Source of the DNA: Maritimibacter alkaliphilus
Lineage (GTDB): Bacteria; Pseudomonadota; Alphaproteobacteria; Rhodobacterales; Rhodobacteraceae
Reading direction: 5' to 3'
DNA length: 64,000 nucleotides
NCBI RefSeq assembly: GCF_019801605.1
Contig: NZ_JAHVIT010000002.1
Span: 558,001-622,000, forward strand
The translations under genes and the position numbers were made by a program. The notes under the pieces are model-generated. The model saw only the letters and a program-made list of their open reading frames with translations. It had not been told where the DNA came from and made no database searches. Shown in pieces: positions 47,084 to 60,344 of this stretch (position 1 is the first letter of the stretch; each line of letters opens with the position of its first letter).

Positions 47084-47085
47084 TC

Positions 47086-47787
47086 TTATGCCCTTTCACC
47101 GCTGATCGAGACGGGACCAAGCGGGTATTTCACGTTGTGCCGGGTCGGCCATTCGCGGAACGCGGCGCGCGCGCCCGGGAAGCCGATGTAGACCCAGGAC
47201 TGCATTTCGAAGTTCCCGCCGTATTGCGGGTCCGCGAAGTAGCCTTCCTTGGTGTTGGCGAGCAGGATGGTGAAGAAGTCGCGCACCTCTGCGGGCAGGC
47301 CGACCTCGCCCTTCTGAAGGGCGGTCAGGGCCTCGTCCTGCTGCGCCGGTTCCAGCGCGGCGAACTCGGCCTGATAGGTCTCTTCGCACCAAGCGTTGAA
47401 GGCGGGGATCGCCTGACGGTAGACCTCGGCCGGGTTCAGCGGGGTCTGCCAGCCGCGGGCGGGCTCGGCGTTCGCGTCGTGGGGGCCTTCCATGTACCAG
47501 TCATCGGCGGTGCCGTAGTCACCGGCCAGCTGGAGGTCGATGAAGACCGGAACGCGGGCTTCGAGGGCGCCGGGGCCATCGCCCTCGGAGGGGATCAGCC
47601 GCGCGGTCGCGGCCATCACGAAGGCCCATTCATCTGCGGTCAGATAGTCGGGCTGGTATTGGTCAAGCGGCACGGGAGCGGGCGCATTCTGCGCCGAGGC
47701 GGGCAGTGCGAGCCCGCTCAGTGCCATGCCGGCGGCGGAAGCTTTGAGGAAGCTCCGGCGGCTGGGGAGTCCGGGAATGTCGGTCAT
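47086..47787 (-). CDS. Gluconate 2-dehydrogenase subunit 3 family protein (Tat-exported)
   Basis: A 233-residue protein with a twin-arginine signal SRRSFLK (residues 9-15) followed by a hydrophobic stretch ending near ASA. The body is the gluconate 2-dehydrogenase subunit 3 family (ADEWAFVMAATARLIPSEGDGPGALEARVPVFID). It acts as export escort and structural subunit for the FAD subunit. First gene of the operon; GMC and cytochrome c follow. About 190 bp upstream is a palindrome CTGAAGGATTTCCTTCAG, with two further operator-like sites beyond. Confidence 0.9.
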   Translation of the reverse strand: MTDIPGLPSRRSFLKASAAGMALSGLALPASAQNAPAPVPLDQYQPDYLTADEWAFVMAATARLIPSEGDGPGALEARVPVFIDLQLAGDYGTADDWYMEGPHDANAEPARGWQTPLNPAEVYRQAIPAFNAWCEETYQAEFAALEPAQQDEALTALQKGEVGLPAEVRDFFTILLANTKEGYFADPQYGGNFEMQSWVYIGFPGARAAFREWPTRHNVKYPLGPVSISGERA

Positions 47788-47982: not shown

Positions 47983-48000
47983 CTGAAGGATTTCCTTCAG
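47983..48000. promoter_or_regulatory. Palindrome upstream of the GMC dehydrogenase operon
   Basis: CTGAAGGA-TT-TCCTTCAG is a perfect 8-bp inverted repeat with a 2-nt centre, 196 bp upstream of the small-subunit ATG. CTGAAG recurs at 47964. It is a likely protein site, or a hairpin in a leader. Confidence 0.4.
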
Positions 48001-48086
48001 AATGGCTGATGGATTTACCCTCACACAAGGGCAAAGTTGGCCCTCTGCGCGGGATGACTGTGTACTGATGCACACAATTCTCGATG

Positions 48087-48133
48087 TTTGTGATCACAAA
48101 AATTGGCCAGAGACCGGTGTTTGCGATCACAAA
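48087..48133. promoter_or_regulatory. Tandem operator-like palindromes TTTGTGATCACAAA / TTTGCGATCACAAA
   Basis: A perfect 14-bp palindrome at 48087-48100 is followed by a second copy at 48120-48133 with one changed base. Centres are 33 bp apart, close to three helical turns. They sit in the 660-bp gap between the GMC operon and the orphan receptor gene, 315 bp from the latter's start. Apart from these sites, 47788-48447 holds no gene I can support. Confidence 0.55.
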
Positions 48134-48447
48134 GAGACCGGCGCGGCACCGGCCGGACCTGCCCGGCCAGCGTACCGCTGTTCCCGCGATCTGTCCCGCG
48201 AGCGACGCGCCAGCCGCGTGGCGGGCTGCGGAGAGGTCCGTCAGCGCAGGGCTTGCGAAAATACCCGTTCCGCTCCCCTGCGCTTCGGTCTAGGCTGGGG
48301 GCGGAGACGGGGATTTCCCCGGAGGAGAAGACGGCAAATCGACGCGGGCGGGGAGGCCCGGGGCGAGGCGCCGGGGCCACGGGCCCGAAGCAGGCGCAGG
48401 GCAGCCCGGTGGAGCGGGCGCCCCGCACGTCAGGGAGGAGACGTCGG

Positions 48448-49524
48448 ATGATCCGCGATCTGGCCGGGGGCCTTGCCGCCCTCGCTTTCGCCGTTACCGC
48501 AACCGCCGCAGCCCCGGACCGGGCCGGGGCGCAGGGGCTGCCACAGCCGATCAATATCGCCAAGCCGCGCGTCGAACTGGCGCTGTCGCACTGGCTGCCC
48601 GCCGACCACCCGCTCGTCACCCATGGGTTCACACCCTGGGCGCGGGCGATCGAACGCGCGAGCGGCGGGCGCCTGGAGGTGGCGCTCTATCCAGCGCAGC
48701 AACTGGGCCGCGCGGCGGAGCACTACGACATGGCCCGCGAGGGCAGTGCCGATATCGTCTTCATCAACCAGGGCTATTCGCCGGGCCGCTTCCCGCTGCT
48801 GTCCCTGACCGAGATGCCGATGCTGGTCTCGGACGCGGTGACGGGCTCGAAAGCCATCCAGCAATGGTACGCCGAATACGCGCCGCAGGAGATGGCGGGC
48901 GTCTATCCCTGCCTCGTCTTCCAGCATGATCCCGGCACGCTGCACGCGATGTCCGGCCCGCTGAGTGCGCCGGAGGACCTGAAGGGGCGCAGCGTGCGTC
49001 CGGCCAACGGCACGATGGTGGAACTGATCCGCGACCTTGGCGGCGAGGCTGTCCTCGCCCCCGCGCCCGAGATGCAGGCGATGCTGGAGCAGGGCGCGGT
49101 CGAGGTGATCGCGGCACCCTGGGACAGTCTCGTCACCTTCGGGCTGGACCGGACGCTGACCCATCACCTGGATATGCCGTTCTACAGTTCGACCTTTGCG
49201 ATCCTGATGAACGCCGCGCGGATCGAGGCGCTCGCCCCCGAGGACCGTGCCATCATCGACCGGCATTGCACGCCGGAGGCGTCGGAGCGCATGGCCGCAG
49301 GCTGGGTGGCGGAAGAGCACAAGGGTCGCGCCGTGCTGGAGGGACGCCCGGGCCACGTGACCTACAGGCCCTCGCCGAAGGAGATCGACGCGTGGAAGGC
49401 GGCGACTGCGCCGCTGATGGCGGGCTGGCGCAGGAACGTGGCGAACCAGACCGGTGTCGATCCCGACGTGGCACTTGCCGGACTGGAGCGCCGGCTGGAA
49501 GCGGCGGGCGCGCTCTACGAGTGA
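48448..49524 (+). CDS. Orphan TRAP-type substrate-binding protein (DctP family)
   Basis: A 358-residue protein with a signal peptide (about 1-29, MIRDLAGGLAALAFAVTATAA) and a DctP body: LSHWLPADHPLVTHGFTPWARAIERASGGRLEVALYPAQQLG and DLKGRSVRPANGTMVELIRDLGGEAV. The start is supported by CAGGGAGGAG upstream. No dctQ or dctM gene is next to it, so it must use distant or shared permeases, or act as a sensor receptor. It is divergent from the GMC dehydrogenase operon across a region with tandem operators, which hints at a joint role in handling the same substrate. Confidence 0.85.
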   Translation: MIRDLAGGLAALAFAVTATAAAPDRAGAQGLPQPINIAKPRVELALSHWLPADHPLVTHGFTPWARAIERASGGRLEVALYPAQQLGRAAEHYDMAREGSADIVFINQGYSPGRFPLLSLTEMPMLVSDAVTGSKAIQQWYAEYAPQEMAGVYPCLVFQHDPGTLHAMSGPLSAPEDLKGRSVRPANGTMVELIRDLGGEAVLAPAPEMQAMLEQGAVEVIAAPWDSLVTFGLDRTLTHHLDMPFYSSTFAILMNAARIEALAPEDRAIIDRHCTPEASERMAAGWVAEEHKGRAVLEGRPGHVTYRPSPKEIDAWKAATAPLMAGWRRNVANQTGVDPDVALAGLERRLEAAGALYE

Positions 49525-49528
49525 GGTC

Positions 49529-49559
49529 GCCCGGACGCCGCCCGGACGCCGCCCGGACG
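49529..49559. repeat. Short tandem repeat, period 11
   Basis: GCCCGGACGCC occurs twice in tandem plus a partial third copy, starting four bases after the receptor gene stop. Confidence 0.8.
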
Positions 49560-49825
49560 GGGAGGGGCGCGAGGGGGCCGCGAACCGGACCCGTGGTGCC
49601 GTGCGGGCTTGCGTGACTTCGGCGCCGCCCCGTGGGGCAGGGCGCCGCAAGAGATGTGCCCGGGACAGGACGTTCCAGCCGGTCCCGCGTGGCACGGCGG
49701 CGGAGGACAGGGGATGCCCTCCGCCGATCCATCGGCAGAGTTGTGCGGGGCGCAGGCACAAGGGGCGCGCCTGAAGTGGGCCCCCGAGGCCGGGCCACCG
49801 TCGGGGGCGGCCGCCCGATCGCCTG

Positions 49826-49892
49826 CTGCTCGCCTGCGACCGGGGTGCCAGGCTCAGGCTGGCAGTTGGGCCCGCAAGGGGCTGGCGAGCAG
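49826..49892 (-). other. Nested inverted repeats at the 3-prime end of the pyrE operon
   Basis: Outer arms CTGCTCGCC (49826-49834) and GGCGAGCAG (49884-49892) enclose an inner hairpin TGCCAG/CTGGCA (49846-49864). Read on the minus strand, this follows the last gene by a few bases and may be a structured 3-prime end. There is no U-tract. The remaining gap 49560-49825 shows no gene. Confidence 0.4.
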
Positions 49893-49894
49893 GA

Positions 49895-50215
49895 TCAGAC
49901 GCGGGTGCTGGCGCGGGCTGCGGCGACGCGGTTCAGCGCGGCGAGGATCGTCTCGGGCTCACCCGCCTCATAGGCCGCCTGCAGCGCCTCGATGTCCTTC
50001 TGGAAGGCCTCGAAGCTCTGTTCCAGATCCTGCTTCGACATCGGCATCCGCTCGTGCAGGTCGGCAAAGTTCTCGGCGCTGGTGGCGATCAGGTAGAAGG
50101 CAGCGGCGTGCTGGGGTTCGGCCACGGCCTTGGTGAAGGACTTCTTGGCCACCGCCTCGTAGGCGAGAATGCTGCGGCCCTGCTCCTTGAGCGTGTCGAG
50201 AATGAAGGTGAACAT
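49895..50215 (-). CDS. Small conserved-looking protein of unknown function, last gene of the pyr/TRAP operon
   Basis: A 106-residue, mostly helical protein (FTFILDTLKEQGRSILAYEA, AAFYLIATSAENFADLHERM, LEQSFEAFQKDIEALQAAY). No signal peptide, Cys cluster or known catalytic motif is seen. It starts 15 bases after the pyrE stop with AAGGAATAG as ribosome site, so it is probably co-transcribed with the operon. Codon use matches its neighbours. I do not recognise the family; the helical pattern would suit a small binding or regulatory protein. Confidence 0.65.
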   Translation of the reverse strand: MFTFILDTLKEQGRSILAYEAVAKKSFTKAVAEPQHAAAFYLIATSAENFADLHERMPMSKQDLEQSFEAFQKDIEALQAAYEAGEPETILAALNRVAAARASTRV

Positions 50216-50230
50216 TGTCTATTCCTTTGG

Positions 50231-50941
50231 TCAGAAGATCAGGCGGCGGGAGCCGCCGTGGGCCGCGGACCAGTCCAGCGGCGCGTCGAGGAAGCTGGCG
50301 ATACGGTCCAGTTCCTCGGGGGTGAACCATGTGCCTTCCTTGGCGACGGCAAGGATGTCACGCCAGGTGGCAAGGGCATGCAGCCGCAGCCCGTGGTCGG
50401 CAAGGGCGGCGCGTGTTTCGGGGAAGATGTCATACTGGAACAGCATGATCACGTCGCGCACCCGCACGTCGGCCTGCCGCAGCGCCTCGCAGAAGCGGAT
50501 CTTGGAGGCGCCGTCCGTGGTCAGGTCCTCCACCAGCAGCACGCGCTGTCCGGGCCGGGCCTCGCCTTCGATCATCGCGGAGGGGCCGAAGCCCTGCGCG
50601 CGCTTGCGGACGTAGAGCATGGGCTTGCCGGTCATCGCGGCGATCCATGCGGCAAAGGGAATGCCGGCGGTTTCCGCGCCCGCGATGCTGTCGATCTGGT
50701 CGCGGCCGATATCGGCGTCCAGCACCTCCACGGCAAAGCGCATCAGCATCTCGCGGATCGCGGGATGCGAGATCACCTTGCGCACGTTGATGTAGACCGG
50801 GCTCGCCACGCCGGAGGACAGGATAAAGGGCCGCTCGCCGGCCAGTTCCACGGCGCCGATCTCCAGCAGCGCGCGGGCGGTGCGGCGGGCGAAATCCTGT
50901 CGGGTTTCGGGGGCGAGTGGCATGGGCAGGGGTCCGGTCAT
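50231..50941 (-). CDS. pyrE: Orotate phosphoribosyltransferase
   Basis: A 236-residue type I phosphoribosyltransferase. GQRVLLVEDLTTDGASK at 131-147 is the PRPP loop; the N-terminal SGVASPVYINVRKVISHP and the YVRKRAQGFG loop match PyrE. It converts orotate and PRPP to OMP. Its ATG overlaps the upstream amidohydrolase stop (ATGA), and it is followed by the small unknown gene. Unlike most relatives it is linked to a TRAP transporter and to an N-carbamoyl hydrolase rather than to pyrC, suggesting salvage of exogenous orotate. Confidence 0.95.
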   Translation of the reverse strand: MTGPLPMPLAPETRQDFARRTARALLEIGAVELAGERPFILSSGVASPVYINVRKVISHPAIREMLMRFAVEVLDADIGRDQIDSIAGAETAGIPFAAWIAAMTGKPMLYVRKRAQGFGPSAMIEGEARPGQRVLLVEDLTTDGASKIRFCEALRQADVRVRDVIMLFQYDIFPETRAALADHGLRLHALATWRDILAVAKEGTWFTPEELDRIASFLDAPLDWSAAHGGSRRLIF

Positions 50942-52206
50942 TCTTCGCCCTCCAGATAGGCGGAAAGCACCGCCGTGCCCACCATGAAATCACCGATTTC
51001 CATGGCCTCGTCGGGGTTGTGGCTGCCGTTGCGGTTGCGCACGAAGACCATGCCCGCGGGAATCCCGGCCTGCGCAAAGATCGCCGCGTCGTGTCCGCCG
51101 CCCGAGGCCATGGTGAAATGATCGCCCGTGGCGCGGGTCATCGCCGCCTCCAGCCCCGCGATGATCTGCGGGTCCATCAATGCCGGGGCGACTGCGACCT
51201 CTGCGCCGGTGTCGAAGCTGACGCCGCGCGACCGGGCGATGTCGTCCATCTGCTCGCGCAGGTAGGCGCGCATCTGGTCCAGCACCTCGACCTCCTGCGA
51301 GCGGATGTCGAGCGAGAAGGCCAGTTCGTCGGGAATCCGCGAGATCGCGTGGCGCGTGGGATCGGTGCCCACGATGCCCGAGGTCAGCACGAGGTCGCGA
51401 CCGGTCTGCGACAGGTGCCGCCATGTGTCGTCGAGCCGGTGCATGAGTTCGGCAAAGGCCAGCACGGGGTCATGGCGATAGGCCCGCGGCACGGCGCCGG
51501 AGTGACCGGCCTGACCGATGCAGCGGATCTGCCGGTGGCGGAAGTTGCCCCGGATGCCCGAGACGACCGCGGCGGGAATGTTGCGTTCGACCAGCAATGG
51601 GCCCTGTTCGATGTGCAGCTCCAGATAGGCCTCGATCTTCGACAGGTCGCAGATCGGCTGGTTGGCCGCGATCGGCGCGGTGTCGATGCCAAGCGCGTCG
51701 AGATGCGCGCGCAGCGGGCGTCCGTCGGTCTTGTGGGTGGCGGCGAGTTCATCCGCGGGCAGCGACCCGGTCAGCATCTTGGAGCCGAGGTAACAGGCCC
51801 CGAACCACGCGCTTTCCTCGCCGCGCATGGCAAGGCATTTGACCGGGCGGCGGAAGCGGCTGCCAGTGCGGGCGGCGCGGATCAGCACGATCAGCCCGGC
51901 CGCGACCCCGGCGAGCCCGTCGAAGTTGCCGCCCATGGGCACGCTGTCCACGTGGGAGCCGATGAGCACCCAGCTTTCGGCCTCTGCATCCTCGGGCAGG
52001 GAAAAGAGCAGGTTGCGGCCCGCGTCCTCCTCCACCGCCAGCCCGTTGCGGCGGGCGAAGTCCGCCAGCCAGTCGAGCGTCGCCGTCTCCACCTCCGAAA
52101 AGGCCGGGCGGCTGACGCCCGCTGCATCCGGCGACAGGGCGCGGATGCCGTCGAAAATCTCCTCCGCCAGCGAGGCGAGGGCGGGATCGGCCTGTAGGTC
52201 CTTCAT
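50938..52206 (-). CDS. Zn-dependent N-carbamoyl-amino-acid hydrolase (M20 amidohydrolase family)
   Basis: A 422-residue M20-family amidase of the hydantoinase/carbamoylase and allantoate amidohydrolase group. GSHVDSVPMGGNFDG supplies metal ligands His85 and Asp96, GEES at 129-132 the bridging and catalytic glutamates, His198 in ELHIEQGP and the terminal GGGHDAAIF the remaining ligand. These enzymes release CO2 and ammonia from N-carbamoyl amino acids or ureido acids. The overlap with pyrD (ATGA upstream) and pyrE (ATGA downstream) makes N-carbamoyl-L-aspartate (ureidosuccinate) an attractive substrate, but that is inference. No dihydroorotase gene is visible. Confidence 0.88.
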   Translation of the reverse strand: MKDLQADPALASLAEEIFDGIRALSPDAAGVSRPAFSEVETATLDWLADFARRNGLAVEEDAGRNLLFSLPEDAEAESWVLIGSHVDSVPMGGNFDGLAGVAAGLIVLIRAARTGSRFRRPVKCLAMRGEESAWFGACYLGSKMLTGSLPADELAATHKTDGRPLRAHLDALGIDTAPIAANQPICDLSKIEAYLELHIEQGPLLVERNIPAAVVSGIRGNFRHRQIRCIGQAGHSGAVPRAYRHDPVLAFAELMHRLDDTWRHLSQTGRDLVLTSGIVGTDPTRHAISRIPDELAFSLDIRSQEVEVLDQMRAYLREQMDDIARSRGVSFDTGAEVAVAPALMDPQIIAGLEAAMTRATGDHFTMASGGGHDAAIFAQAGIPAGMVFVRNRNGSHNPDEAMEIGDFMVGTAVLSAYLEGEE

Positions 52207-53141
52207 TCGTGCAGCCCCTCTGCCGGGGCCTCGACCGTGCCGATGATCTGCGACAGCGAGGTGACGCCCTGCGCCTGCATCCAGCCCGAAAGCTCTGCCA
52301 CGAGACGCGCCATGACGGTGGGCGACTGGAAGGTCGCGGTGCCCACCTGAACGGCGGCCGCCCCTGCGATGAGGAACTCCAGCACATCGTCGAGCGTGGC
52401 GATGCCGCCGCAGCCGATCACGGGGATGCGGCAGGCCTGCGCCGTCTGGTAGGTCATCCGCAGGGCGATGGGCTTGATCGCCGGGCCGGACATGCCGCCC
52501 ATGACATTGCCCAGCCTGGGCCGGCGGGTGCTGATGTCGATGGACATGCCAAGCGCCGTGTTCGCCACCACGAGGGCATCGGCCCCGGCGGCCTCGGCGG
52601 CCAATGCGACCTCCACCGGCTCACCGGTGTTGGGGGTCAGCTTGGCCCAGAGGGGCAGGTCGGTTTCCGCGCGCAGCCGGGTGACGACATCCCGGGTCGT
52701 CTCGGGGCGCATGGCGAAGGCCTGACCGTTGGCCTCGATGTTCGGGCAGGAGATATTCGCCTCGATCGCCGCCACGCCGGGCAGCGAGACCTCGGCGCAG
52801 AGTTGGGCGAATTCATCCATCGAATGGGCCGAGATCGAGACCACCAGCGGCGCGCCGTAGCGGGCCCAGTAGGGCAGCATCCGTTCCCGGAAATCCTCGA
52901 TCCCCTTGGAGGGGATGCCGATGGCGTTCAGCATCCCGCCTTGCAGATCACAGACCCGGGGCGTCGGATTGCCGTCGCGCTTGCCGTGCATGATCGTCTT
53001 CAGGACATGCGCGCCGAGGATGTCGAGGTCGAAGACATCGGAGAGGTCCTCGGAAAAGGTGCCAGAGGCCGGCATGATCGGATTGGCGAGGCGCAGCGCG
53101 CCCACCTGCGCCGAAAGGTCGGGGGTCATCAGGTCCTTCAT
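52203..53141 (-). CDS. pyrD: Dihydroorotate dehydrogenase, class 1B catalytic subunit
   Basis: A 312-residue FMN enzyme. NISCPN at about 129-134 places a Cys (Cys132) where class 1 enzymes have their catalytic base; class 2 enzymes have Ser there. Partnership with PyrK, whose gene shares a TGATG with it, confirms class 1B. The reaction is dihydroorotate to orotate (or the reverse) with NAD through PyrK. The ATG at 53141 is fixed by that overlap. Class 1B is typical of Gram-positive bacteria; most Proteobacteria use the membrane class 2 enzyme, so its presence next to a transporter is notable. Confidence 0.93.
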   Translation of the reverse strand: MKDLMTPDLSAQVGALRLANPIMPASGTFSEDLSDVFDLDILGAHVLKTIMHGKRDGNPTPRVCDLQGGMLNAIGIPSKGIEDFRERMLPYWARYGAPLVVSISAHSMDEFAQLCAEVSLPGVAAIEANISCPNIEANGQAFAMRPETTRDVVTRLRAETDLPLWAKLTPNTGEPVEVALAAEAAGADALVVANTALGMSIDISTRRPRLGNVMGGMSGPAIKPIALRMTYQTAQACRIPVIGCGGIATLDDVLEFLIAGAAAVQVGTATFQSPTVMARLVAELSGWMQAQGVTSLSQIIGTVEAPAEGLHE

Positions 53142-53983
53142 CACATCGCCTCCGCAATGGGGAAGACCGGGCCTTCGCGGCAGACCCGGCGCTGGATCAC
53201 GCGCTCGCCCACCCGGAAGGGGCGCACGCAGGCCTGACACATGCCGAGACCGCAGGCCATCTGCTGTTCCATGGCGATCTCGCCGGGGATGCCGTGGGTG
53301 CGGCCAAGGTCCTGCAACAGACGCAACAGCCGCGAGGAGCCGCAGGTGTAGAAGGCATCGACCTGACCTGCCGCGATGCGGGCCTCGATCAGCGGGCGCA
53401 GTGCCTCGGGGGTGGAGGAGCCATCCTCGTCATGGACCACGATCACCTCGGCGCCGTAGTCGCGGAACAGCTCGACCGACATGGCCAGTTCCGGCCTGCG
53501 GGCGGAGCAGATGGCGGTGAGACGGCGTCCCCTGGCCTGTGCCTCGCGCGCCAGCGGGGCCAGCGTGGCAAGGCCCACGCCGCGCGCCACCAGCATCAGG
53601 TTCTGCCACTCCTCGGGCATCGAGAAGCCCTGACCCAGCGGCCCCAGCACGTTCAGGCTGTCGCCCGCGCACAGGGTGGCAAGGCCCCGGGTGCCGGCGC
53701 CTGCGACCTTGTAGAGGAACTGGAGGCGGCCCGACTCGGCGTCATAGCCATAGATGCTCATCGGGCGGCGCAGGAAGGGATGCTCCCCCTCCGGCGCGGG
53801 GCAGAGCAGCTGGAAGAACTGGCCCGGCTGGCAATTCAGCGCCTCGCGCGGCGCGTCCAGCACCAGCAGGCGATATTCGCCGTTCACGGGGGTGTTGGAG
53901 ACGACGACGGCGCTTGCCTCGAGGCAACGGGCGCTCAGGCCCTCGGGCGCAGGCACCGAGAGGATCGTGGGAGACAGGGACAT
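53141..53983 (-). CDS. pyrK: Dihydroorotate dehydrogenase electron transfer subunit PyrK
   Basis: A 280-residue ferredoxin-reductase-like subunit. The N-terminal FAD domain has CQPGQFFQLLCPAPEGEHPFLRRPMSIY, the NAD domain MLVARGVGLATLAPLA, and a 2Fe-2S domain with ACGLGMCQAC (C-x4-C-x2-C) and a later Cys in RRVCREGP. It shuttles electrons between PyrD-FMN and NAD. The stop shares a base with the pyrD start. It begins 12 bp after dctM, so the transporter and enzyme genes are one operon. Confidence 0.94.
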   Translation of the reverse strand: MSLSPTILSVPAPEGLSARCLEASAVVVSNTPVNGEYRLLVLDAPREALNCQPGQFFQLLCPAPEGEHPFLRRPMSIYGYDAESGRLQFLYKVAGAGTRGLATLCAGDSLNVLGPLGQGFSMPEEWQNLMLVARGVGLATLAPLAREAQARGRRLTAICSARRPELAMSVELFRDYGAEVIVVHDEDGSSTPEALRPLIEARIAAGQVDAFYTCGSSRLLRLLQDLGRTHGIPGEIAMEQQMACGLGMCQACVRPFRVGERVIQRRVCREGPVFPIAEAM

Positions 53984-53995
53984 TTTGGACCTTTC

Positions 53996-55279
53996 TCAGC
54001 CGAAGAAGAGACGCGGCACGAAGAGCGAGATTTGCGGGATGTAGGTGATCAGCAGCAGGACGATCAGGTTCACCAGAACGAAGGGCCAGACACCGGCGAT
54101 GATCTGCGCCACCGGGCGCCCTAGCGTCGAGGAGGCGACGAAGATGTCGAGCCCGAAGGGCGGTGTGATCATGCCGAGGCAGACGTTCAGGGTGACGATC
54201 ATGCCGAAGTGCACCGGGTCGATCCCGAAGCTGAGCGCGACCGGGTAGAGCGGCGGCACCAGCACCAGCATGGTTGAGTTCGGATCGACGAACATCCCCG
54301 CGATGAAGAAGCAGACGTTGACCGCGATCAGGAAGGTGATCCGCCCGGCGTCCGCCGCGTCGAGGAAGGAGATGATCGAGTTGGGCACCTGCGCCAGCGT
54401 GACGAAGAAGGAGATCAGCCCGCCCATGGCCAGCAGCACGAAGATGATCGCGGTGTTGATCGCGCTGTCCTCGGTGATCTTGAAGAGGCCCTTCAGGTCG
54501 AGGCTGCGGAAGACGATCATTTCCACGAGGATCGCGTAGACCACGCTGACGGCGGCGGCCTCGGTGGGCGTGATGACGCCCGAGTAGATGCCGCCGAGGA
54601 TGATCACCGGCATGCCGAGCGCCCATTTCGCATCCCACATGGCGCGGAAGCGCGCGGACCACGGCAGTTTCGGCCCGGGCTCCACGCCGTCCTTGATGGC
54701 CTGCAGGTGCACGAAGACCGAGAAGGCGATGCCGAGGACGACCCCCACGGCGAGGCCGCCCGCGAAGAGCTGCGAGATCGAGGTGCCGGTGATCCAGCCA
54801 TAGACGATCAGCGTGATCGAGGGCGGGATCAGCAGGGCGGTCTCGGCGCTGGCGACCAGCAGGCCGAGGGAGAACTTGTCGGAATAGCCTGCCGCGCGCA
54901 TCTCGGGATAGACCATGCGGCCCATTGCGGCGACCGTTGCAGGTGCCGAGCCCGAGACCGAGCCGAAGGCCATCGAGCCACCGACGACCACGTGACCGAT
55001 GCCGCCGCGGGTGTGGCCCAGCAGGGCCTTCACCACGCCGACCAGCTGGCGTGCGATCTGACCCGAGCCCATGAGGTTCGCGGCGAAGATGAAGAAGGGG
55101 ATCGCCAGCAGGGTGGAATGGTCGATGCCGCCCACGATCTTCTGCACCACCGCCGCATCGGGCAGCTTGCCATAGAAGGCTTCCTTGTAGGCGAGCGCAG
55201 GCACACCCAGCACCAGCAGCATCTCGAAGCCGGCGGCCAGCAGGACCACCGCGAGGAGGATAATCAGGGTGAGGATCAT
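53996..55279 (-). CDS. TRAP transporter large permease DctM (pyrimidine-gene-linked)
   Basis: A 427-residue large permease with about 12 helices. VGGSMAFGSVSGSAPATVAAMGRMVYPEM, ASAETALLIPPSITLIVYGWITGTS and NVCLGMITPPFGLDIFVASS are the DctM hallmarks. It overlaps dctQ (ATGA) and is followed after 12 bp by pyrK. The substrate is a carboxylate; genomic coupling to PyrKD and PyrE suggests orotate, dihydroorotate or ureidosuccinate. Confidence 0.94.
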   Translation of the reverse strand: MILTLIILLAVVLLAAGFEMLLVLGVPALAYKEAFYGKLPDAAVVQKIVGGIDHSTLLAIPFFIFAANLMGSGQIARQLVGVVKALLGHTRGGIGHVVVGGSMAFGSVSGSAPATVAAMGRMVYPEMRAAGYSDKFSLGLLVASAETALLIPPSITLIVYGWITGTSISQLFAGGLAVGVVLGIAFSVFVHLQAIKDGVEPGPKLPWSARFRAMWDAKWALGMPVIILGGIYSGVITPTEAAAVSVVYAILVEMIVFRSLDLKGLFKITEDSAINTAIIFVLLAMGGLISFFVTLAQVPNSIISFLDAADAGRITFLIAVNVCFFIAGMFVDPNSTMLVLVPPLYPVALSFGIDPVHFGMIVTLNVCLGMITPPFGLDIFVASSTLGRPVAQIIAGVWPFVLVNLIVLLLITYIPQISLFVPRLFFG

Positions 55280-55773
55280 GCGTCGGACTCCTGCGGCGCA
55301 AAGCGGTCGATCACGCCGAAGAGGCTGAGGCCGTAACGCAGCGCCAGCAGGACGAAGCCCACCACCGGCGCGATGTAGATGTAGCCCATGGGCACGCCCA
55401 GCGTGGGCGAGCTCTGGCCGGTTTTCAGCACGAACTGCACGAGGCCCCAGCCGAGCCATGCGACGTAGAGGCTGAAGATGACCCCGACCACGTCGATGCT
55501 GCGCTGCACCAGCTTGTGCAGGTGGTCGGGCAGCTTCTCGCGCAGGTTGGTGATGCCGACGTGCTTGCCGCGCTCCAGCGCGAGGCCAAGGGCAAGGAAG
55601 ACGAGGAAGAGGTTCATCAAGCGCACGGCCTCTTCGATCCAGGCGAAGCGGCTTGCGAAGGTGCCGCCGATTTCCCGCGTGATCACGGAACCGGTGTAGA
55701 GCAGCACCATGGTGAGGAAGAGCGTGACCAGCACGCTGCGTTCGATCACCCGGAGAAGGCGGAGGGCTTGCAT
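55276..55773 (-). CDS. TRAP transporter small permease DctQ (pyrimidine-gene-linked)
   Basis: A 165-residue, four-helix small permease; GLALERGKHVGITNLREKLPDHL is the conserved DctQ loop. ATG at 55773 is chosen because AGAGGAG lies just upstream. Its stop overlaps the dctM start (ATGA). It lies 98 bp after dctP, separated by a short hairpin. Confidence 0.88.
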   Translation of the reverse strand: MQALRLLRVIERSVLVTLFLTMVLLYTGSVITREIGGTFASRFAWIEEAVRLMNLFLVFLALGLALERGKHVGITNLREKLPDHLHKLVQRSIDVVGVIFSLYVAWLGWGLVQFVLKTGQSSPTLGVPMGYIYIAPVVGFVLLALRYGLSLFGVIDRFAPQESDA

Positions 55774-55832
55774 GAGAACTCCTCTGAAACAAAGGACCCG
55801 GGCGCGGGGCAATGCCGGCCCGGGCAAGTCGG

Positions 55833-55848
55833 CCCGCCCGAAGGCGGG
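55833..55848 (-). other. Intercistronic hairpin between dctP and dctQ
   Basis: CCCGCC and GGCGGG pair around CGAA (TTCG tetraloop on the minus strand, the transcribed sense). Position just after dctP matches the hairpin found in the other TRAP operon. Confidence 0.55.
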
Positions 55849-55871
55849 ACGGGGAGATTTTCGGGGGCCGC

Positions 55872-56876
55872 TTACTTGGCGGTTTCTTCCATGTAGATGT
55901 CGAGCAGCTTCTGGCCGGCTTCGCCGGTCTTGGCGACATAGGCCTCGGAGGCCGGGCCGAACATCTGTTCGCGGAAGGCGGCGCGCTCTGCCTCATCCGC
56001 GACGCGGACGTTGGTGCCGGCGTCCTTGATGGCGTCCAGCGAGGCTTCGACGGCCGCGGCCTTGTGGGCGGTCATCTCGGGGATCACTTCGGCGAAGGCA
56101 TCGGTGATGATGGTCTTGTAGTCGTCCGGCAGGCTTTCCCAGAACATCGGGTTGAAGAGGACGACATCCTCCATCGCACCGTGATCGGAGACGACGAGGT
56201 ACTTCTGCACTTCGTAGAACTTCATCGCGCGGATGGTGTCGAGCGGGTTTTCCTCGCCGTCCACGACGCCGGTCTGAAGCGAGGTGTAGAGCTCGCCGAA
56301 GGGCAGGGCGATGGCGGAGGCGCCAAGCGCGTTGAACTGTTCGATCAGGATCGAGCTGTCCATGACGCGGAACTTCTGGCCCGAGAAATCGGAGATCGAG
56401 TCGAGCGGCTTGTTCGAGGTGAACTGCTTCTTGCCGTTCGGCCAGAGCTCGATCGCGACGAGGCCCTTGTCCGAGAAGCTGTCGAGCAGCGCCTGACCGA
56501 AGGGGCCGTCGCGCAGGGCGGCGGCGGCCTCGGCGTCCTCGGGGATCAGGTAGGGCACGTCGAGGATCGACACCAGCGGGTTGAAGCCGCCGAGGAAGGC
56601 GGCGGGGGCGACGGTCGCCTCCATCGTGCCGAGCTGCACGCCTTCGTTCATCTGGCGCTGGTTGCCCAGCTGGCCCTGCGGGAAGATCTGGAATTCGACG
56701 GCGCCCTCGGTGCGCTCCTTCACCAGTTCCGCGACCTTCTCGAGGTGGATGTGGCGGCTCTGCTGGGTGGATTCGAGATGGCCGATCTTCGCGACGTAGT
56801 CCTGCGCCATGGCAGGTGCGGCGAAGCCGAGGCCGGTTGCCGCGACGGCGGCGAAGAGGATGGAGGTGGTTTTCAT
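55872..56876 (-). CDS. TRAP transporter substrate-binding protein DctP (pyrimidine-gene-linked)
   Basis: A 334-residue periplasmic receptor with a 24-residue signal peptide (MKTTSILFAAVAATGLGFAA to AMA). GAVEFQIFPQGQLGNQRQMNEGVQLGTMEATV and FSGQKFRVMDSSILIEQFNALGASAIALPFGELYTSLQTGVVDGEENPLDTI are the DctP signatures, including the Arg of the RVMDS segment that normally grips the substrate carboxylate. First structural gene of the operon, downstream of a probable operator and of the XRE regulator. Ligand identity is inferred only from neighbours. Confidence 0.93.
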   Translation of the reverse strand: MKTTSILFAAVAATGLGFAAPAMAQDYVAKIGHLESTQQSRHIHLEKVAELVKERTEGAVEFQIFPQGQLGNQRQMNEGVQLGTMEATVAPAAFLGGFNPLVSILDVPYLIPEDAEAAAALRDGPFGQALLDSFSDKGLVAIELWPNGKKQFTSNKPLDSISDFSGQKFRVMDSSILIEQFNALGASAIALPFGELYTSLQTGVVDGEENPLDTIRAMKFYEVQKYLVVSDHGAMEDVVLFNPMFWESLPDDYKTIITDAFAEVIPEMTAHKAAAVEASLDAIKDAGTNVRVADEAERAAFREQMFGPASEAYVAKTGEAGQKLLDIYMEETAK

Positions 56877-56954
56877 TATACGCTCCCCAAGGGTCCCTTG
56901 TTGCGATGGATGCCTGAGCGTTCACTCTAGCGTGTCCTTCGTCAATGGGGAAAA

Positions 56955-56968
56955 TCTCAAAAATGAGA
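56955..56968. promoter_or_regulatory. Inverted repeat TCTCA-AAAA-TGAGA upstream of dctP
   Basis: A 5-bp perfect inverted repeat with a 4-nt A centre, 79 bp upstream of the dctP ATG and between dctP and the XRE gene. The spacing suits an XRE-family (Cro/cI-like) dimer, so the adjacent regulator is the natural candidate. Confidence 0.5.
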
Positions 56969-57028
56969 CGGCAGCGCAAGCCCTGACGTGCACGTTGGGT
57001 CACCTGCCGTGAATTTGGGCGCTTCGGC

Positions 57029-57910
57029 TCAGGTGATCCCGTGCTTCGCGATCAGCGATTCGACGTGCGCCGCGGCTTCCATTCCCTTGAGCGAGGTGGC
57101 CCAGAGCCGCTGCGCGATCCCCTCGTGCAACTCCAGCGCCTCGGGGGCCTGGGTGATCAGGCCGACGCCCACCCGGATGTTGGGATTGTGGCCCAGCCGG
57201 AAGGGGCTGATCGTCAGGGTCGAGGCGCCGCCCTTGCGGGCGATCTGGAACGAGGTCGAGGGGATCGGTTCGCGTGCGACACCGATCTGGATGCCGATAT
57301 CGGGCTCGCGCAGCATCCGCACGATATGCTCCACCTCGGCCAGGGCCATGCGTCGGCGGGCCTGCCGTTCCTCCGGGGCGAGATCGAAGCGCCCCTCCAG
57401 CCCGTCGCGCAGGAATTTCTCAAGGTCCTGGTCCGAGATGATCGAGGCCAGAAGCGGACGACGCTGTTGAAAACGCTGCTTTCTCTGCGACAGGATCGAC
57501 AGGATCGTATCCACGTCCGGCGCGGCACCCCCACCCACGGACTCACGCAGCACATCGGCCAGAACCCGGTCGTAGTTTTCCGTGGTGACGAGGTAGGAGA
57601 TCGGGCTGAAGAGGCCGATGATCTGCTCGCTGTCGTCCTCGATCTGGCGCATGCGTTCGAAGAAGCCGACGGCATTGGCGACGTATTCGATACCGACGCC
57701 CAGCAAGGTGGGCAGCGAGACGTGAAGCTCGTCCGCGATGGCGGTCAGCATCTCGATCTTGGCGATCTCGCCTTTCTCGGCGCGGTAGAGCGCGGCGCGG
57801 GAAATTCCCAGCCTCTGCGCCAGGTCCTCGGGCGAGAGGCCGCGGCCCAGCCGGTGGGCGCGCAGCCGCGCCCCGACTTCGAGGAAGTTTACCTTGCTGG
57901 ACTGGGTCAC
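57029..57910 (-). CDS. XRE-family transcriptional regulator
   Basis: A protein of about 293 residues with an N-terminal Cro/cI HTH: GARLRAHRLGRGLSPEDLAQRLGISRAALYRAEKGEIAKIEMLTAIADELHVSLPTLLG. The following 220 residues are a helical-plus-beta sensor body of unknown ligand specificity, with a FERMRQIEDDSEQI helix. I start it at GTG 57910; an alternative in-frame GTG at 58003 gives 324 residues, and ribosome sites are weak for both, so the exact start is uncertain. It is 152 bp upstream of dctP on the same strand, with the TCTCA-N4-TGAGA repeat between, so it is the most likely regulator of the TRAP-pyr operon. Confidence 0.82.
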   Translation of the reverse strand: MTQSSKVNFLEVGARLRAHRLGRGLSPEDLAQRLGISRAALYRAEKGEIAKIEMLTAIADELHVSLPTLLGVGIEYVANAVGFFERMRQIEDDSEQIIGLFSPISYLVTTENYDRVLADVLRESVGGGAAPDVDTILSILSQRKQRFQQRRPLLASIISDQDLEKFLRDGLEGRFDLAPEERQARRRMALAEVEHIVRMLREPDIGIQIGVAREPIPSTSFQIARKGGASTLTISPFRLGHNPNIRVGVGLITQAPEALELHEGIAQRLWATSLKGMEAAAHVESLIAKHGIT

Positions 57911-58205
57911 CCTGTTTCCGCCGTTCGATCCGCCTTGCGGCTCGTTCGGCCGCGTCTCGAAAATGATCCAATCATGTGTCGAGCCGGTCTGCAACGGGGG
58001 CACAACGGCGGGCGCGGGCAGAATCAGCGAAAATGGCTGTCTTGTCAGGGCTGCGGGGCGTCTGTGGGCCTGCCTCGAATTCTGGACGTCCGAGGGAGGC
58101 TGCCGGGTTTTCGGGCATTTTGGCTCTGGCCGGGCGCGGTGACCCCGTTCTTCTCACTCCTGAGACGGCGCGGGGAAACGGGGCGCCCGGAGGCGCCCCG
58201 GGGCC

Positions 58206-58859
58206 TCAGCCCATGCGGAAGTCGCGGATATGCGCGGGCATCTCGACGCCGTCCAGATTGCGCGGATCGGGAATCGGCTCGCCCACGACGGTCTGCACGG
58301 GAATCACCCCGGCCCAGATCGGCAGGGCGTAATCCTCATCCTCGTCCGACGGCTGGCCGGTGCGGACCTTGGCGCTGCCTTCCTCGATCTTCATGCCGAG
58401 GACCATGGTCGCCTTCAGGTCCTGTTCATGATCGGGGCGCAGCCCGTCGTACCGGCCCGGGAAGAGGCCGTTCACGAAGCGCGCCAGCTTGGCCAGCTTC
58501 TCGTCCGGGTCCTCCACCTTGAAGGCGGTGCCGAAGAGCGTGACCGAGCGCGAGTTGACCGAATGGTGCATCCCGGAGCGGGCCATGACGAACCCGTCGA
58601 GGATCGAGACCGAGAGGCAGACCTCGGCCTCCTTGCCCGCGCGCAGCGCGCGGCTGGCCGAAGAGCCGTGCCAGTAGACGTGATCGCCCTCGCGCCATTG
58701 CAGCGTCGGCGTGACATAGGGCTTGCCGTCCATGACGTATCCGACGCTGCACAGCGGCTGCGCGTCGAGGATCGCGTCGATGGTCTCGCGGTCGAAATGC
58801 CCCCGCTGGTGCGAACGGCGCAGGCGGCTCCGGTCCGTGACGGGAAGGCTGTCGGCCAT
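58206..58859 (-). CDS. Pyridoxamine 5-phosphate oxidase-related FMN-binding protein
   Basis: A 217-residue split-barrel protein of the PNPOx-like family. YVTPTLQWREGDHVYWHGSSASRAL and SVTLFGTAFKVEDPDEKLAKL are the FMN-binding barrel segments, and the C-terminus VWxG-like YALPIWAGVIPVQTV closes the barrel. It may be a PNP oxidase, a heme-utilisation or a flavin-reductase relative; the reaction is not clear. AGGA precedes the ATG. It is divergent from a MocR/PdxR regulator by 60 bp, a common arrangement in which the regulator controls the PNPOx-like gene in response to pyridoxal phosphate. Confidence 0.85.
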   Translation of the reverse strand: MADSLPVTDRSRLRRSHQRGHFDRETIDAILDAQPLCSVGYVMDGKPYVTPTLQWREGDHVYWHGSSASRALRAGKEAEVCLSVSILDGFVMARSGMHHSVNSRSVTLFGTAFKVEDPDEKLAKLARFVNGLFPGRYDGLRPDHEQDLKATMVLGMKIEEGSAKVRTGQPSDEDEDYALPIWAGVIPVQTVVGEPIPDPRNLDGVEMPAHIRDFRMG

Positions 58860-58919
58860 GGGATGTTCCTTTCTCTTCGATTGCCCGATGGGGGATACCG
58901 CGCTATTGGCGTGTTCGAC
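58860..58919. promoter_or_regulatory. Divergent control region between PNPOx-like gene and MocR regulator
   Basis: Only 60 bases separate the two start codons, so promoters and operator must overlap here. A repeated CGATTG/CGATGG hexamer (58878 and 58886) is the one direct repeat I can see. Confidence 0.4.
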
Positions 58920-60344
58920 ATGTCCACCTCTGCGATTTCTCACCAGTCCAATCTGGACGCCGCCCTGTTCCGCCTGACACTGGACCGGCAGGGGGCGCAA
59001 CCGCTGCAACAGCAGCTGGCGGAAGAGTTGCGCGGGCTGATCCGCACCGGGCGCCACGCGGGCGCGCGGCTGCCGGCGAGCCGGACGCTGGCGGCGGAGC
59101 TGTCGGTCTCGCGGATGACGGTGACCACGGCCTACGATCAGCTCACCGCCGAGGGGTACCTGGTGGCGCGGCGCGGGGCCGGGACCTACGTCGCGGCAGA
59201 CCTGCCGCATCTGGCGCCGCCGGCCCCGCGCCGGGCCCCGCCACTGGCCGCGCCGGCGCCCTACCTGCCGTTCCAGCCGGGCGTGCCGGACCAGCGGCTC
59301 TTTCCCCATCGCCTCTGGGCGCGGCACCTCGAACGGGCGTGGCGCCATCCGCCGCCCGCGCTGCTGGCACGCGCCGATCCCTTCGGTTGGGGCCCGCTGC
59401 GGGTGGCAATCAGCGAGCACCTTGCCGCGTGGCGCGGGCTGGAGGCGGCGCCGGACCAGATCGTCATCACCGGCGGCGCCTGGGATGCCTTCGACCTGAT
59501 CAGCCAGCAGGTGGCCCTGCGCGGAGGCGCGATCGCGGTGGAGGACCCGGGCTGGCCCACGCTGCACCGACTGCTGACACGGCGCGGGGTGACGCCGCAT
59601 CCGGTGCGCATCGACGAGAGCGGCTTCGATCCGGCGGCCTGTCCGGCGGGGACGGCGGCGGCCGTGGTCACGCCCTCGCGCCACTATCCGACCGGGCGGG
59701 CGATGCCGTTGTCCCGGCGGCTGCAGGTGCTGCACTGGGCTGAGGCCGAAGGCGCGCTGGTGGTGGAGGACGACTATGACAGCGAATTCCGCTACCAGGG
59801 GCAGCCGCTGCCCTCGCTCGCGGGTCTCGATGGTCTGCGTCGCACGATCTACATGGGCAGCTTTTCCAAGCTGCTGAGCCCGGCACTGCGGATCGGCTAC
59901 CTCGTCCTGCCCGAAACGCTGGTGGGGGCGGTGCGGGAGGACCTTGCCGTGACCGGGGTGCGGGCGTCGCTGCTGCCACAGCCCGCCCTGGCGGAGTTCA
60001 TGGCAAGCGGAGACTTCGCCACCCACCTGCGCCGGATGCGGCGGGTCTATGCCCGGCGGCAGGGTCATCTGCTGGCCGCGCTGGAGGCGGCAGGTGCGGG
60101 CGCGGCACTGGCGTTGAAGCCGGACCCCTCCGGGATGCACCTGGTGCTGTCCCTGTGCGACGGGCAGAGCGATGCCGCCATCGCCGCCGGGGCGGAAGCG
60201 CGGGGGATCGGGCCCCGGGCGCTGAGCTCCCACGCGCTGCTGCCGGAGGCGCCGCAGGGCCTGATACTGGGCTACGCGGCCTTCGAGCCGGAGGAACTGG
60301 ATGCCGCCGCCCGCGTGTTGGCAGAGGTGCTGGCGCAGGGCTGA
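58920..60344 (+). CDS. MocR/PdxR-type PLP-dependent transcriptional regulator
   Basis: A 474-residue GntR-HTH plus aminotransferase-I fusion. The HTH is QPLQQQLAEELRGLIRTGRHAGARLPASRTLAAELSVSRMTVTTAYDQL; the PLP domain has VVTPSRHYPTGRAM, VVEDDYDSEFRY with the cofactor Asp, and the Schiff-base Lys in GSFSKLLSP. Such proteins sense PLP or a PLP-amino acid adduct. Divergence from the PNPOx-like gene strongly suggests autogenous and divergent control. Upstream ribosome site is weak (GGCGTG), so the start is less certain than the family. Confidence 0.92.
   Translation: MSTSAISHQSNLDAALFRLTLDRQGAQPLQQQLAEELRGLIRTGRHAGARLPASRTLAAELSVSRMTVTTAYDQLTAEGYLVARRGAGTYVAADLPHLAPPAPRRAPPLAAPAPYLPFQPGVPDQRLFPHRLWARHLERAWRHPPPALLARADPFGWGPLRVAISEHLAAWRGLEAAPDQIVITGGAWDAFDLISQQVALRGGAIAVEDPGWPTLHRLLTRRGVTPHPVRIDESGFDPAACPAGTAAAVVTPSRHYPTGRAMPLSRRLQVLHWAEAEGALVVEDDYDSEFRYQGQPLPSLAGLDGLRRTIYMGSFSKLLSPALRIGYLVLPETLVGAVREDLAVTGVRASLLPQPALAEFMASGDFATHLRRMRRVYARRQGHLLAALEAAGAGAALALKPDPSGMHLVLSLCDGQSDAAIAAGAEARGIGPRALSSHALLPEAPQGLILGYAAFEPEELDAAARVLAEVLAQG

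What the first reader, a model, noticed from the sequence alone, without database searches (positions are those of the whole stretch)
49895..57910. TRAP transporter fused genomically to class 1B PyrD/PyrK, an N-carbamoyl hydrolase and PyrE: candidate orotate/ureidosuccinate uptake and utilisation operon
Seven genes of this run abut or overlap: dctP-dctQ-dctM, then pyrK (12 bp later), pyrD (TGATG), M20 carbamoylase (ATGA), pyrE (ATGA) and a small unknown gene. All face the same way as an upstream XRE gene. PyrD has the class 1 Cys in NISCPN and a PyrK partner, so it is NAD-linked and can run in reverse, as in catabolic orotate-degrading clostridia. A carbamoylase could split ureidosuccinate to aspartate, CO2 and ammonia, and PyrE could salvage orotate. 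pyrB and pyrC are absent here. I infer a dedicated system to import a pyrimidine precursor and either salvage or degrade it.
Basis: partly seen in the sequence, partly recalled or inferred. Interest (0 to 1): 0.85.

Follow-up and report, generated by a model that had tools for sequence, protein, structure and literature searches.

The report
Bacterial operon for eating orotate
This marine bacterium carries a self-contained gene set, with its own switch, that very likely imports the pyrimidine precursor orotate and breaks it down to aspartate (or salvages it), and one of its genes is a candidate for an enzyme long known only as an activity.

Summary
DctP (55872-56876) is 63% identical to the Maridesulfovibrio salexigens TRAP binding protein crystallised with orotic acid (4NN3). 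A genome encoding the 4NN3 sequence has the related cluster: regulator, DctPQM, M20 carbamoylase, dihydroorotase, PyrE, with PyrK-PyrD nearby. Of 80 DctP-anchored loci, 62 carry PyrK+PyrD+M20; 29 of these also carry a dihydroorotase, the one step missing here. The window's genome has a quinone PyrD, a dihydroorotase and a second PyrE elsewhere, so this is not the de novo pathway. My reading: orotate enters by TRAP; PyrDK reduces it to dihydroorotate; housekeeping PyrC opens the ring; M20 (candidate ureidosuccinase) yields aspartate, CO2 and NH3; PyrE is a salvage branch. An XRE regulator with a PLD-like, HKD-less second domain co-occurs with a TCTCA-N4-TGAGA site (60 of 63 regulator-bearing loci, 0 of 18 without; once in the genome with its -35-like box). 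Against: 15 loci have the transporter without the enzymes, and most class-level relatives have enzymes without this transporter. Direction, M20 substrate and regulator binding are inferred, not shown.

The parts
57029..57910 (-). XRE-family regulator: HTH plus a C-terminal domain with a PLD-like (HKD-less) predicted fold; proposed regulator of this operon
   Evidence: Pfam HTH_31/HTH_3; AF2 model pLDDT 90; Foldseek to SauUSI, PLD, Zucchini, Nuc, best E 8e-5, TM about 0.4 of the query; 0 of 30 rows have HxKxxxxD; XRE gene present in 62 of 80 DctP-anchored loci
56955..56968 (-). proposed operator TCTCA-N4-TGAGA, 9 nt upstream of a -35-like TTGAC
   Evidence: at most 2 mismatches in 60 of 63 XRE-bearing loci (59 with at most 1), 0 of 18 loci without XRE; random 220-nt stretches 5% / 1.4%, shuffles about 8% / 0.8% (the motif was defined on this same set). 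Operator plus TTGAC occurs once in the 4.9 Mb genome
56941..56945 (-). -35-like TTGAC of the dctP promoter (the -10 is not resolved)
   Evidence: follows the operator in the printed upstream regions; the consensus scan found no full sigma-70 site
55872..56876 (-). DctP, TRAP solute-binding protein, predicted to bind orotate
   Evidence: 4NN3 E 5e-131; 63% to the 4NN3-identical gene of L179; 4NN3 bound to orotic acid (PMC11668362, passages)
55276..55773 (-). DctQ, TRAP small permease
   Evidence: PF04290
53996..55279 (-). DctM, TRAP large permease
   Evidence: PF06808, TIGR00786
53141..53983 (-). PyrK, FAD/[2Fe-2S] subunit of class 1B dihydroorotate dehydrogenase
   Evidence: PF10418; solved PyrK 5ksw/1ep3; RRPMS and four Cys kept in at least 98% of 61 rows. 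No NCBIfam PyrK cut-off is reached (124 against 314 bits for the best)
52203..53141 (-). PyrD, class 1B catalytic subunit
   Evidence: NF005574 339 bits against cut-off 269, TIGR01037 305 against 270; solved 5ue9/1ep1; NISCPNI kept in at least 98% of 63 rows
50938..52206 (-). M20 carbamoylase, candidate ureidosuccinase (N-carbamoyl-L-aspartate amidohydrolase)
   Evidence: TIGR01879 over cut-off, no equivalog met; Arg128, Arg219, Arg223, Trp134 invariant in 82 clade members; PyrE within one gene of it in 10 of 10 class-level relatives
50231..50941 (-). PyrE, second orotate phosphoribosyltransferase (proposed salvage branch)
   Evidence: NF001729 290 bits against cut-off 245; another copy elsewhere in the genome
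49895..50215 (-). 106-aa conserved all-helical protein of unknown function, last gene of the run
   Evidence: found in 39 of 80 loci; no Pfam or NCBIfam family for the window copy; AF2 pLDDT 93, five helices; best PDB match E 0.72

Best explanation
A dedicated operon for uptake and reductive breakdown of orotate, with a salvage branch and its own regulator. DctP captures orotate and DctQM import it. PyrDK, run in the reductive direction with NADH, makes dihydroorotate. A dihydroorotase opens the ring to N-carbamoyl-L-aspartate; here the housekeeping class II PyrC on another contig would supply this step, while in many relatives PyrC is in the operon. The M20 enzyme hydrolyses N-carbamoyl-L-aspartate to L-aspartate, CO2 and NH3 (ureidosuccinase). 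PyrE can instead draw orotate to OMP. The XRE protein is proposed to bind TCTCA-N4-TGAGA just upstream of the -35 and to switch the operon. Shown by comparison: gene set, conservation, close homology to an orotate-bound protein, separate de novo-type enzymes, co-occurrence of regulator and site. Inferred: orotate binding by this DctP, reaction direction, M20 substrate, binding of the site by XRE, the inducer and the sign of control.
For: DctP's nearest solved relative is an orotic-acid complex. The genome that encodes the 4NN3 sequence (100% over the 308-residue fragment) has XRE, DctPQM, M20, PyrC and PyrE together, with PyrK-PyrD 2.1 kb beyond the regulator gene. 62 of 80 loci have PyrK+PyrD+M20; of these 29 also have PyrC and 50 PyrE. 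PyrC of L071 and of L179 are TIGR00856 dihydroorotases. A search anchored on M20 instead of DctP finds, in 10 of 10 class-level relatives, PyrE within one gene of M20, and PyrC in 5 of 10. In the family around L104's genome, 10 of 149 genomes have the M20 and 9 of these 10 have it in a TRAP-M20-PyrC-PyrE cluster. The window's genome has separate quinone PyrD, PyrE, PyrC and PreA. PyrC of this type is over the cut-off in 73 of 80 sampled family genomes, and PyrC remnants lie between M20 and PyrE in L024 (66 aa, E 2e-18) and, weaker, L057 (E 7e-4), which suggests loss of an in-operon copy. M20 clade-specific arginines suit a dicarboxylate. Recalled, from no call: NADH reduction of orotate and ring opening are favoured, and carbamoyl hydrolysis is practically irreversible.
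Against: No activity, binding or growth was measured for this organism. 15 of 80 loci (13 bare, 2 with XRE) have the transporter without these enzymes, so its ligand need not always be degraded this way. 4 of 10 class-level relatives show M20 with PyrE only, and 9 of 10 show no orthologous TRAP, within the 11-19.5 kb seen; several of those contigs end close by. The window's operon lacks PyrC. In the 4NN3-type genomes PyrK and PyrD are outside the operon and only 27-42% identical to the window's. A PyrK/PyrD pair like this one also sits in an unrelated Rieske-oxygenase/molybdenum-hydroxylase cluster (L028). One M20 relative of the family sample (L175) and one of the L104 family (L185) stand apart from such genes. 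Sequence cannot set the direction of PyrDK.
Confidence: 0.82

Rival explanations
1. Salvage only: orotate is imported and turned by PyrE into OMP to spare de novo synthesis; PyrDK and M20 merely balance the pool.
For: PyrE is in 51 of 80 loci and within one gene of M20 in 10 of 10 class-level relatives, 4 of which show no PyrD, PyrK or PyrC beside them. Lone transporters of this type exist (15 of 80).
Against: 62 loci keep a reductase and a carbamoylase that salvage does not need; 12 of these 62 show no PyrE in the stretch held, and 29 add a dihydroorotase.
Confidence: 0.11
2. The pathway runs forward: dihydroorotate or N-carbamoylaspartate is imported and oxidised by PyrDK to orotate, then to UMP; M20 removes excess.
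For: PyrDK of Firmicutes works in this direction (recalled); PyrC and PyrE are neighbours in relatives.
Against: The closest solved binding protein holds orotic acid and the genome already has a quinone-linked PyrD; M20 would destroy the precursor.
Confidence: 0.04
3. The M20 enzyme hydrolyses another carbamoyl or ureido substrate (allantoate, N-carbamoyl-glutamate and the like), and the cluster has a mixed role.
For: The window copy meets only the broad TIGR01879 subfamily and no equivalog; the L179 copy passes the PRK09290.1-5 'allantoate amidohydrolase' subfamily cut-off (447 against 399 bits).
Against: Repeated neighbourhood with dihydroorotase and PyrE in two searches with different anchors; window copy far under the AllC and ErtE cut-offs (186 against 598; 257 against 520).
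Confidence: 0.06
4. These are simply the de novo pyrimidine genes of this genome.
For: PyrD and PyrE carry de novo names.
Against: Quinone-type PyrD, PyrC dimer and a better-scoring PyrE lie elsewhere; PyrK relatives (E up to 1e-30) are in only 8 of 295 same-family genomes.
Confidence: 0.01

Closest known systems
TRAP binding protein of Maridesulfovibrio salexigens, PDB 4NN3, orotic acid bound (stated in PMC11668362, passages read; orotic acid is listed among new TRAP ligands in PMC5812351, one passage)
   Same: DctP 63% identical; cluster with XRE, DctQM, M20, PyrE; the Lys, Arg and Asn positions that I matched by eye to the paper's description of the site are invariant in the 80 loci
   Different: There PyrC is in the operon and PyrK-PyrD lie beyond the regulator on the other strand; here PyrK-PyrD are in the operon and PyrC is elsewhere
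Anaerobic orotate degradation of Clostridium (Zymobacterium) oroticum: orotate, dihydroorotate, ureidosuccinate, aspartate (recalled, 1950s enzymology; no paper on it was read)
   Same: Same predicted steps and enzyme types
   Different: Predicted here mostly in Alphaproteobacteria, with a TRAP importer, a PyrE branch and its own regulator; C. oroticum genes were not compared
Reductive uracil catabolism (dihydropyrimidine dehydrogenase PreA/PreT, dihydropyrimidinase, beta-ureidopropionase; recalled scheme)
   Same: Same three-step logic with related enzyme folds; the product carries one more carboxylate (aspartate instead of beta-alanine)
   Different: Different enzymes; this genome has a separate PreA
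M20 L-carbamoylase (3N5F) and allantoate amidohydrolase (1Z2L)
   Same: Metal ligands and general ureido-acid residues line up
   Different: Asn of their N-V-I/V-P motif is Ser/Thr/Ala here, followed by Arg/Lys in place of Val; Arg128, 219, 223 and Trp134 are invariant in the clade

Membership tests
TRAP orotate transporter (4NN3 type) | three components DctP, DctQ, DctM | tested here: met
TRAP orotate transporter (4NN3 type) | binding protein closely related to the orotate-bound structure | tested here: met
   E 5e-131, next best solved relative 1e-50; 63%
TRAP orotate transporter (4NN3 type) | binds orotate | not testable with these tools
   needs purified protein
Class 1B dihydroorotate dehydrogenase | PyrD with catalytic Cys and PyrK partner with FAD/[2Fe-2S] | tested here: met
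   the PyrK equivalog cut-offs of NCBIfam are not reached
Class 1B dihydroorotate dehydrogenase | NAD(H)-linked activity and its direction | not testable with these tools
   enzyme assay needed
Orotate catabolic pathway | dihydroorotase available | tested here: met
   pyrC_dimer at C1:1561462 in the same genome; in the locus in 29 of the 62 loci with PyrK+PyrD+M20
Orotate catabolic pathway | ureidosuccinase activity of the M20 protein | not testable with these tools
   inferred from context and residues
Allantoate amidohydrolase AllC (TIGR03176) | score over the curated cut-off | tested here: not met
   186 against 598 bits
N-carbamyl-L-glutamate amidohydrolase ErtE (NF058540) | score over the curated cut-off | tested here: not met
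   257 against 520 bits
De novo pyrimidine genes | the only pyrD and pyrE of the genome | tested here: not met
PLD/Nuc nuclease superfamily (XRE C-terminal domain) | HKD motif HxKxxxxD | tested here: not met
   0 of 30 aligned rows; fold resemblance only

The most novel reading that the evidence does not exclude
The M20 clade is a true ureidosuccinase (EC 3.5.1.7, which I recall as lacking an assigned gene), and it marks a widespread orotate-catabolic regulon of marine Proteobacteria and sulfate reducers, controlled by a new regulator class (XRE HTH joined to a catalytically dead PLD-like sensor) acting at TCTCA-N4-TGAGA, with a conserved helical 106-aa accessory protein of unknown role.
Probability: 0.68. 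Interest if true: 0.68.

Novelty: new variant of a known kind. Interest (0 to 1): 0.63.

Why it matters
It would give genes to a pathway known mainly from 1950s enzymology (recalled) and a candidate sequence for ureidosuccinase. It would explain why this genome, with a quinone PyrD, also carries class 1B PyrDK and a second PyrE that automatic naming would read as de novo enzymes. It predicts that orotate is a usable dissolved organic nitrogen source in the sea, and it offers a candidate orotate-responsive promoter and regulator.

Tried and rejected
De novo pathway: rejected, separate PyrD, PyrC and PyrE found. A catabolic AllC or ErtE identity for M20: cut-offs not met. A known RNA element around the operon: no Rfam match at gathering threshold in 48000-59000. 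A canonical sigma-70 site or a convincing terminator: none beyond chance (0 promoters; 6 terminator-like against a mean of 4.0 in shuffles). The DctP-DctQ gap folds into GC-rich hairpins, but only at z = -1.2. The 106-aa protein: no family for the window copy; of 8 relatives scanned, the best match is MCR_alpha on one (E 2e-4, below its cut-off), judged chance; no solved fold. My mapping of the paper's position 76 to Asn72 of DctP is doubtful, since Asn is not kept there in many loci, and I do not use it.

Papers: I saw search listings (titles and abstract starts, not always the full list: 20 of 37, 40 of 50, 12 of 17) and passages of two papers. None of the listed papers of searches appeared to describe a bacterial orotate-degradation operon, a ureidosuccinase gene or the 4NN3 gene neighbourhood; 'ureidosuccinase' gave 0 papers. 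The library holds open-licence papers only, and a paper that I recalled as the original TRAP survey (doi 10.1021/bi501388y) is not held, so such a remark may be in print.

Rows dropped and limits: one search kept the best 80 of 112 relatives, and they include near-identical relatives of the window (L029). One search used identity floors of my own choice (25-55% by gene). L077 and L084 are short contigs that end near DctP and count as lacking the enzymes; L104 has M20-PyrC-PyrE, but its PyrK (27%) is cut by the contig end and fell under the floor. One search aligned those over 80% of full length: 61 of 63 M20, 60 of 62 PyrK, 62 of 62 PyrD, 39 of 39 of the 106-aa protein. One search aligned 32 of these 39, and one search aligned 29 of 33 XRE rows found (62 loci have XRE). 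One search held 62 operon rows (window included), 11 'class' rows (10 class-level plus L175 of the window's family), 9 of the L104 family and 3 more distant M20 proteins; one labelled column there ('metal H (GSHNP)') was off by one and shows the Ser, while the His is seen.


Full report
What is there. On the - strand, from 57910 down to 49895, lie an XRE regulator, DctP, DctQ, DctM, PyrK, PyrD, an M20 carbamoylase, PyrE and a 106-aa protein. From DctQ to the last gene, neighbours overlap or lie within 15 nt of each other; DctP is separated from DctQ by 98 nt. PyrD passes NF005574 and TIGR01037, its best solved relatives are PyrD subunits of DHOD B, and NISCPN is kept in at least 98% of 63 rows. 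PyrK has the iron-sulfur domain of DHOD B, though it stays under the NCBIfam PyrK cut-offs.

It is not the de novo pathway. In the same genome PF01180 finds five places: the window copy, a quinone-type PyrD on contig 3 (PRK05286.1-2 and TIGR01036 over cut-off), a PreA subunit of dihydropyrimidine dehydrogenase on contig 2, and two weaker relatives. A second PyrE on contig 1 scores higher than the operon copy (380 against 290 bits) and lies beside a dimer-type dihydroorotase. A multimer-type PyrC over its cut-off is also on contig 1.

The ligand. The best solved relative of DctP is 4NN3, E 5e-131, the next being 1e-50. PMC11668362 (passages) states that 4NN3, from Maridesulfovibrio salexigens, was bound to orotic acid; PMC5812351 (one passage) lists orotic acid among new TRAP ligands. 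One genome in the collection encodes a DctP 100% identical to the 308-residue fragment of 4NN3 that I searched with (L179). Its cluster reads XRE (other strand), DctP, DctQ, DctM, M20, PyrC, PyrE; PyrK and PyrD lie on the XRE strand, 2.1 kb beyond XRE and 3.4 kb from dctP. So the gene whose product was crystallised with orotate sits in a related cluster.

Conservation. A DctP search of named genomes gave 112 relatives, of which 80 were kept. 62 of 80 carry PyrK, PyrD and M20; of these 62, 50 carry PyrE and 29 a dihydroorotase. Of all 80, 39 carry the 106-aa gene and 62 the XRE gene. The records include Rhodobacteraceae, Stappia, Nitratireductor, Mesorhizobium, Pseudovibrio, Thalassospira, a betaproteobacterial MAG and Desulfovibrio-type MAGs. 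Thirteen loci have the transporter alone, two transporter plus XRE, two are short contigs, and L104 lacks PyrK-PyrD only because its contig ends. In an even sample of 295 genomes of the window's family, PyrK occurs in 8, M20 in 8 and DctP (E up to 1e-110) in 12; 7 genomes, the window's included, have all three. The eighth PyrK genome has PyrK-PyrD beside a Rieske oxygenase and a molybdenum hydroxylase, so such pairs have other uses too; the eighth M20 (L175, 47%) has no such neighbours.

The missing step. In 30 of 80 loci a PyrC gene follows M20, before PyrE where PyrE is present. One of these (L071) and that of L179 were tested and are TIGR00856 dihydroorotases. In L024 a 66-aa PyrC fragment remains in that spot (E 2e-18), and a weaker trace is in L057 (E 7e-4). 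A PyrC of this type is over the cut-off in 73 of 80 sampled genomes of the family, so it is a housekeeping gene there. I infer that an in-operon copy was lost in some lineages, the window's probably among them, and that the housekeeping enzyme does the step.

The carbamoylase. A second search, anchored on M20 across the class (386 genomes), found 10 relatives at 46-50% besides the window's own. PyrE lies within one gene of M20 in 10 of 10, PyrC in 5, PyrK-PyrD in 3, XRE in 6 and the orthologous TRAP in 1. In the family of L104's genome, 10 of 149 genomes have it, 9 of them in the TRAP-M20-PyrC-PyrE cluster; the tenth (42%) is not. Metal and general ureido-acid residues are kept. Arg128, Arg219, Arg223 and Trp134 are invariant in 82 clade members, and position 290 is Arg in 79 and Lys in 3. 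Three more distant M20 proteins from the same stretches all differ at 290 and 134, and two of the three differ at each of the other Arg positions. In the solved L-carbamoylase and allantoate enzymes Asn stands where the clade has Ser/Thr/Ala (289), and Val where it has Arg/Lys (290). Added positive charge suits N-carbamoyl-L-aspartate; this is inference.

Regulation. A palindrome TCTCA-N4-TGAGA upstream of a TTGAC box precedes dctP in 60 of 63 XRE-bearing loci (window included) and in 0 of 18 loci without XRE; random stretches of the same loci match at 5%. The motif was found on this same set, and the loci are related, so the contrast with XRE-less loci is the better control. The combined pattern occurs once in the whole genome. 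The regulator's second domain is predicted with confidence and resembles PLD-type folds in Foldseek (best E 8e-5, TM about 0.4 of the query) without their HKD motif. I read it as a sensor, not a nuclease; the fold call is moderate and the second aligner was not available.

Mechanism. Shown: gene content, ligand of the closest solved relative, conserved partners, separate de novo-type enzymes, co-occurrence of regulator and site. Inferred: orotate enters by TRAP, is reduced by PyrDK with NADH, opened by PyrC and split by M20 to aspartate, CO2 and ammonia, with PyrE as a side branch. This would be the carboxylated counterpart of reductive uracil breakdown. The redox and equilibrium argument for the direction is recalled knowledge.

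Results against. The transporter occurs without the enzymes, and the enzymes without this transporter. M20 with PyrE alone (4 of 10 class-level relatives, two or more of them near contig ends) suggests that the pair may also serve pyrimidine balance. The L179 copy of M20 passes a subfamily cut-off named for allantoate amidohydrolase. Nothing here measures activity.

Novelty. The chemistry is classical (recalled) and the orotate-bound binding protein is in the PDB; the operon, the M20 assignment, the regulator and its site did not appear in the listings that I saw of a library that lacks most subscription papers.

Noticed in passing
window 48478-49524 (+): A TRAP binding protein gene (TRAP_S1, 71 bits) converging on the operon, with no DctQ or DctM noticed beside it; much weaker DctP match than the operon's own.
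   Followed up: partly
L165 4712-5871; L166 4595-5765; L168 7200-8370: In some relatives a pair resembling sulfopyruvate decarboxylase alpha/beta (below cut-offs) precedes XRE-M20-PyrC-PyrE and no orthologous TRAP is seen; its link to orotate is unexplained (L166 read by likeness only).
   Followed up: partly
L028 5730-12810: A PyrK/PyrD-like pair inside a cluster with a Rieske ring-hydroxylating oxygenase and a molybdopterin hydroxylase: possibly a non-pyrimidine use of a class 1B-type DHODH.
   Followed up: partly
window 49895-50215 and 39 of 80 loci: The 106-aa all-helical protein has no family and no solved fold, yet its gene follows the enzymes in many loci, also in 7 where no PyrE was seen.
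   Followed up: partly
L024 about 6779-6976: Decayed dihydroorotase fragment between M20 and PyrE.
   Followed up: yes
L173 10702-11982: An MFS transporter gene upstream of M20-PyrE in a relative where no orthologous TRAP was seen: possible substitute importer.
   Followed up: no
window 45314-47787 (-): An oxidoreductase gene with a weak choline-dehydrogenase (GMC-type) match and, next to it, a small gene whose product starts with a twin-arginine-like motif (the pair reading is mine).
   Followed up: no
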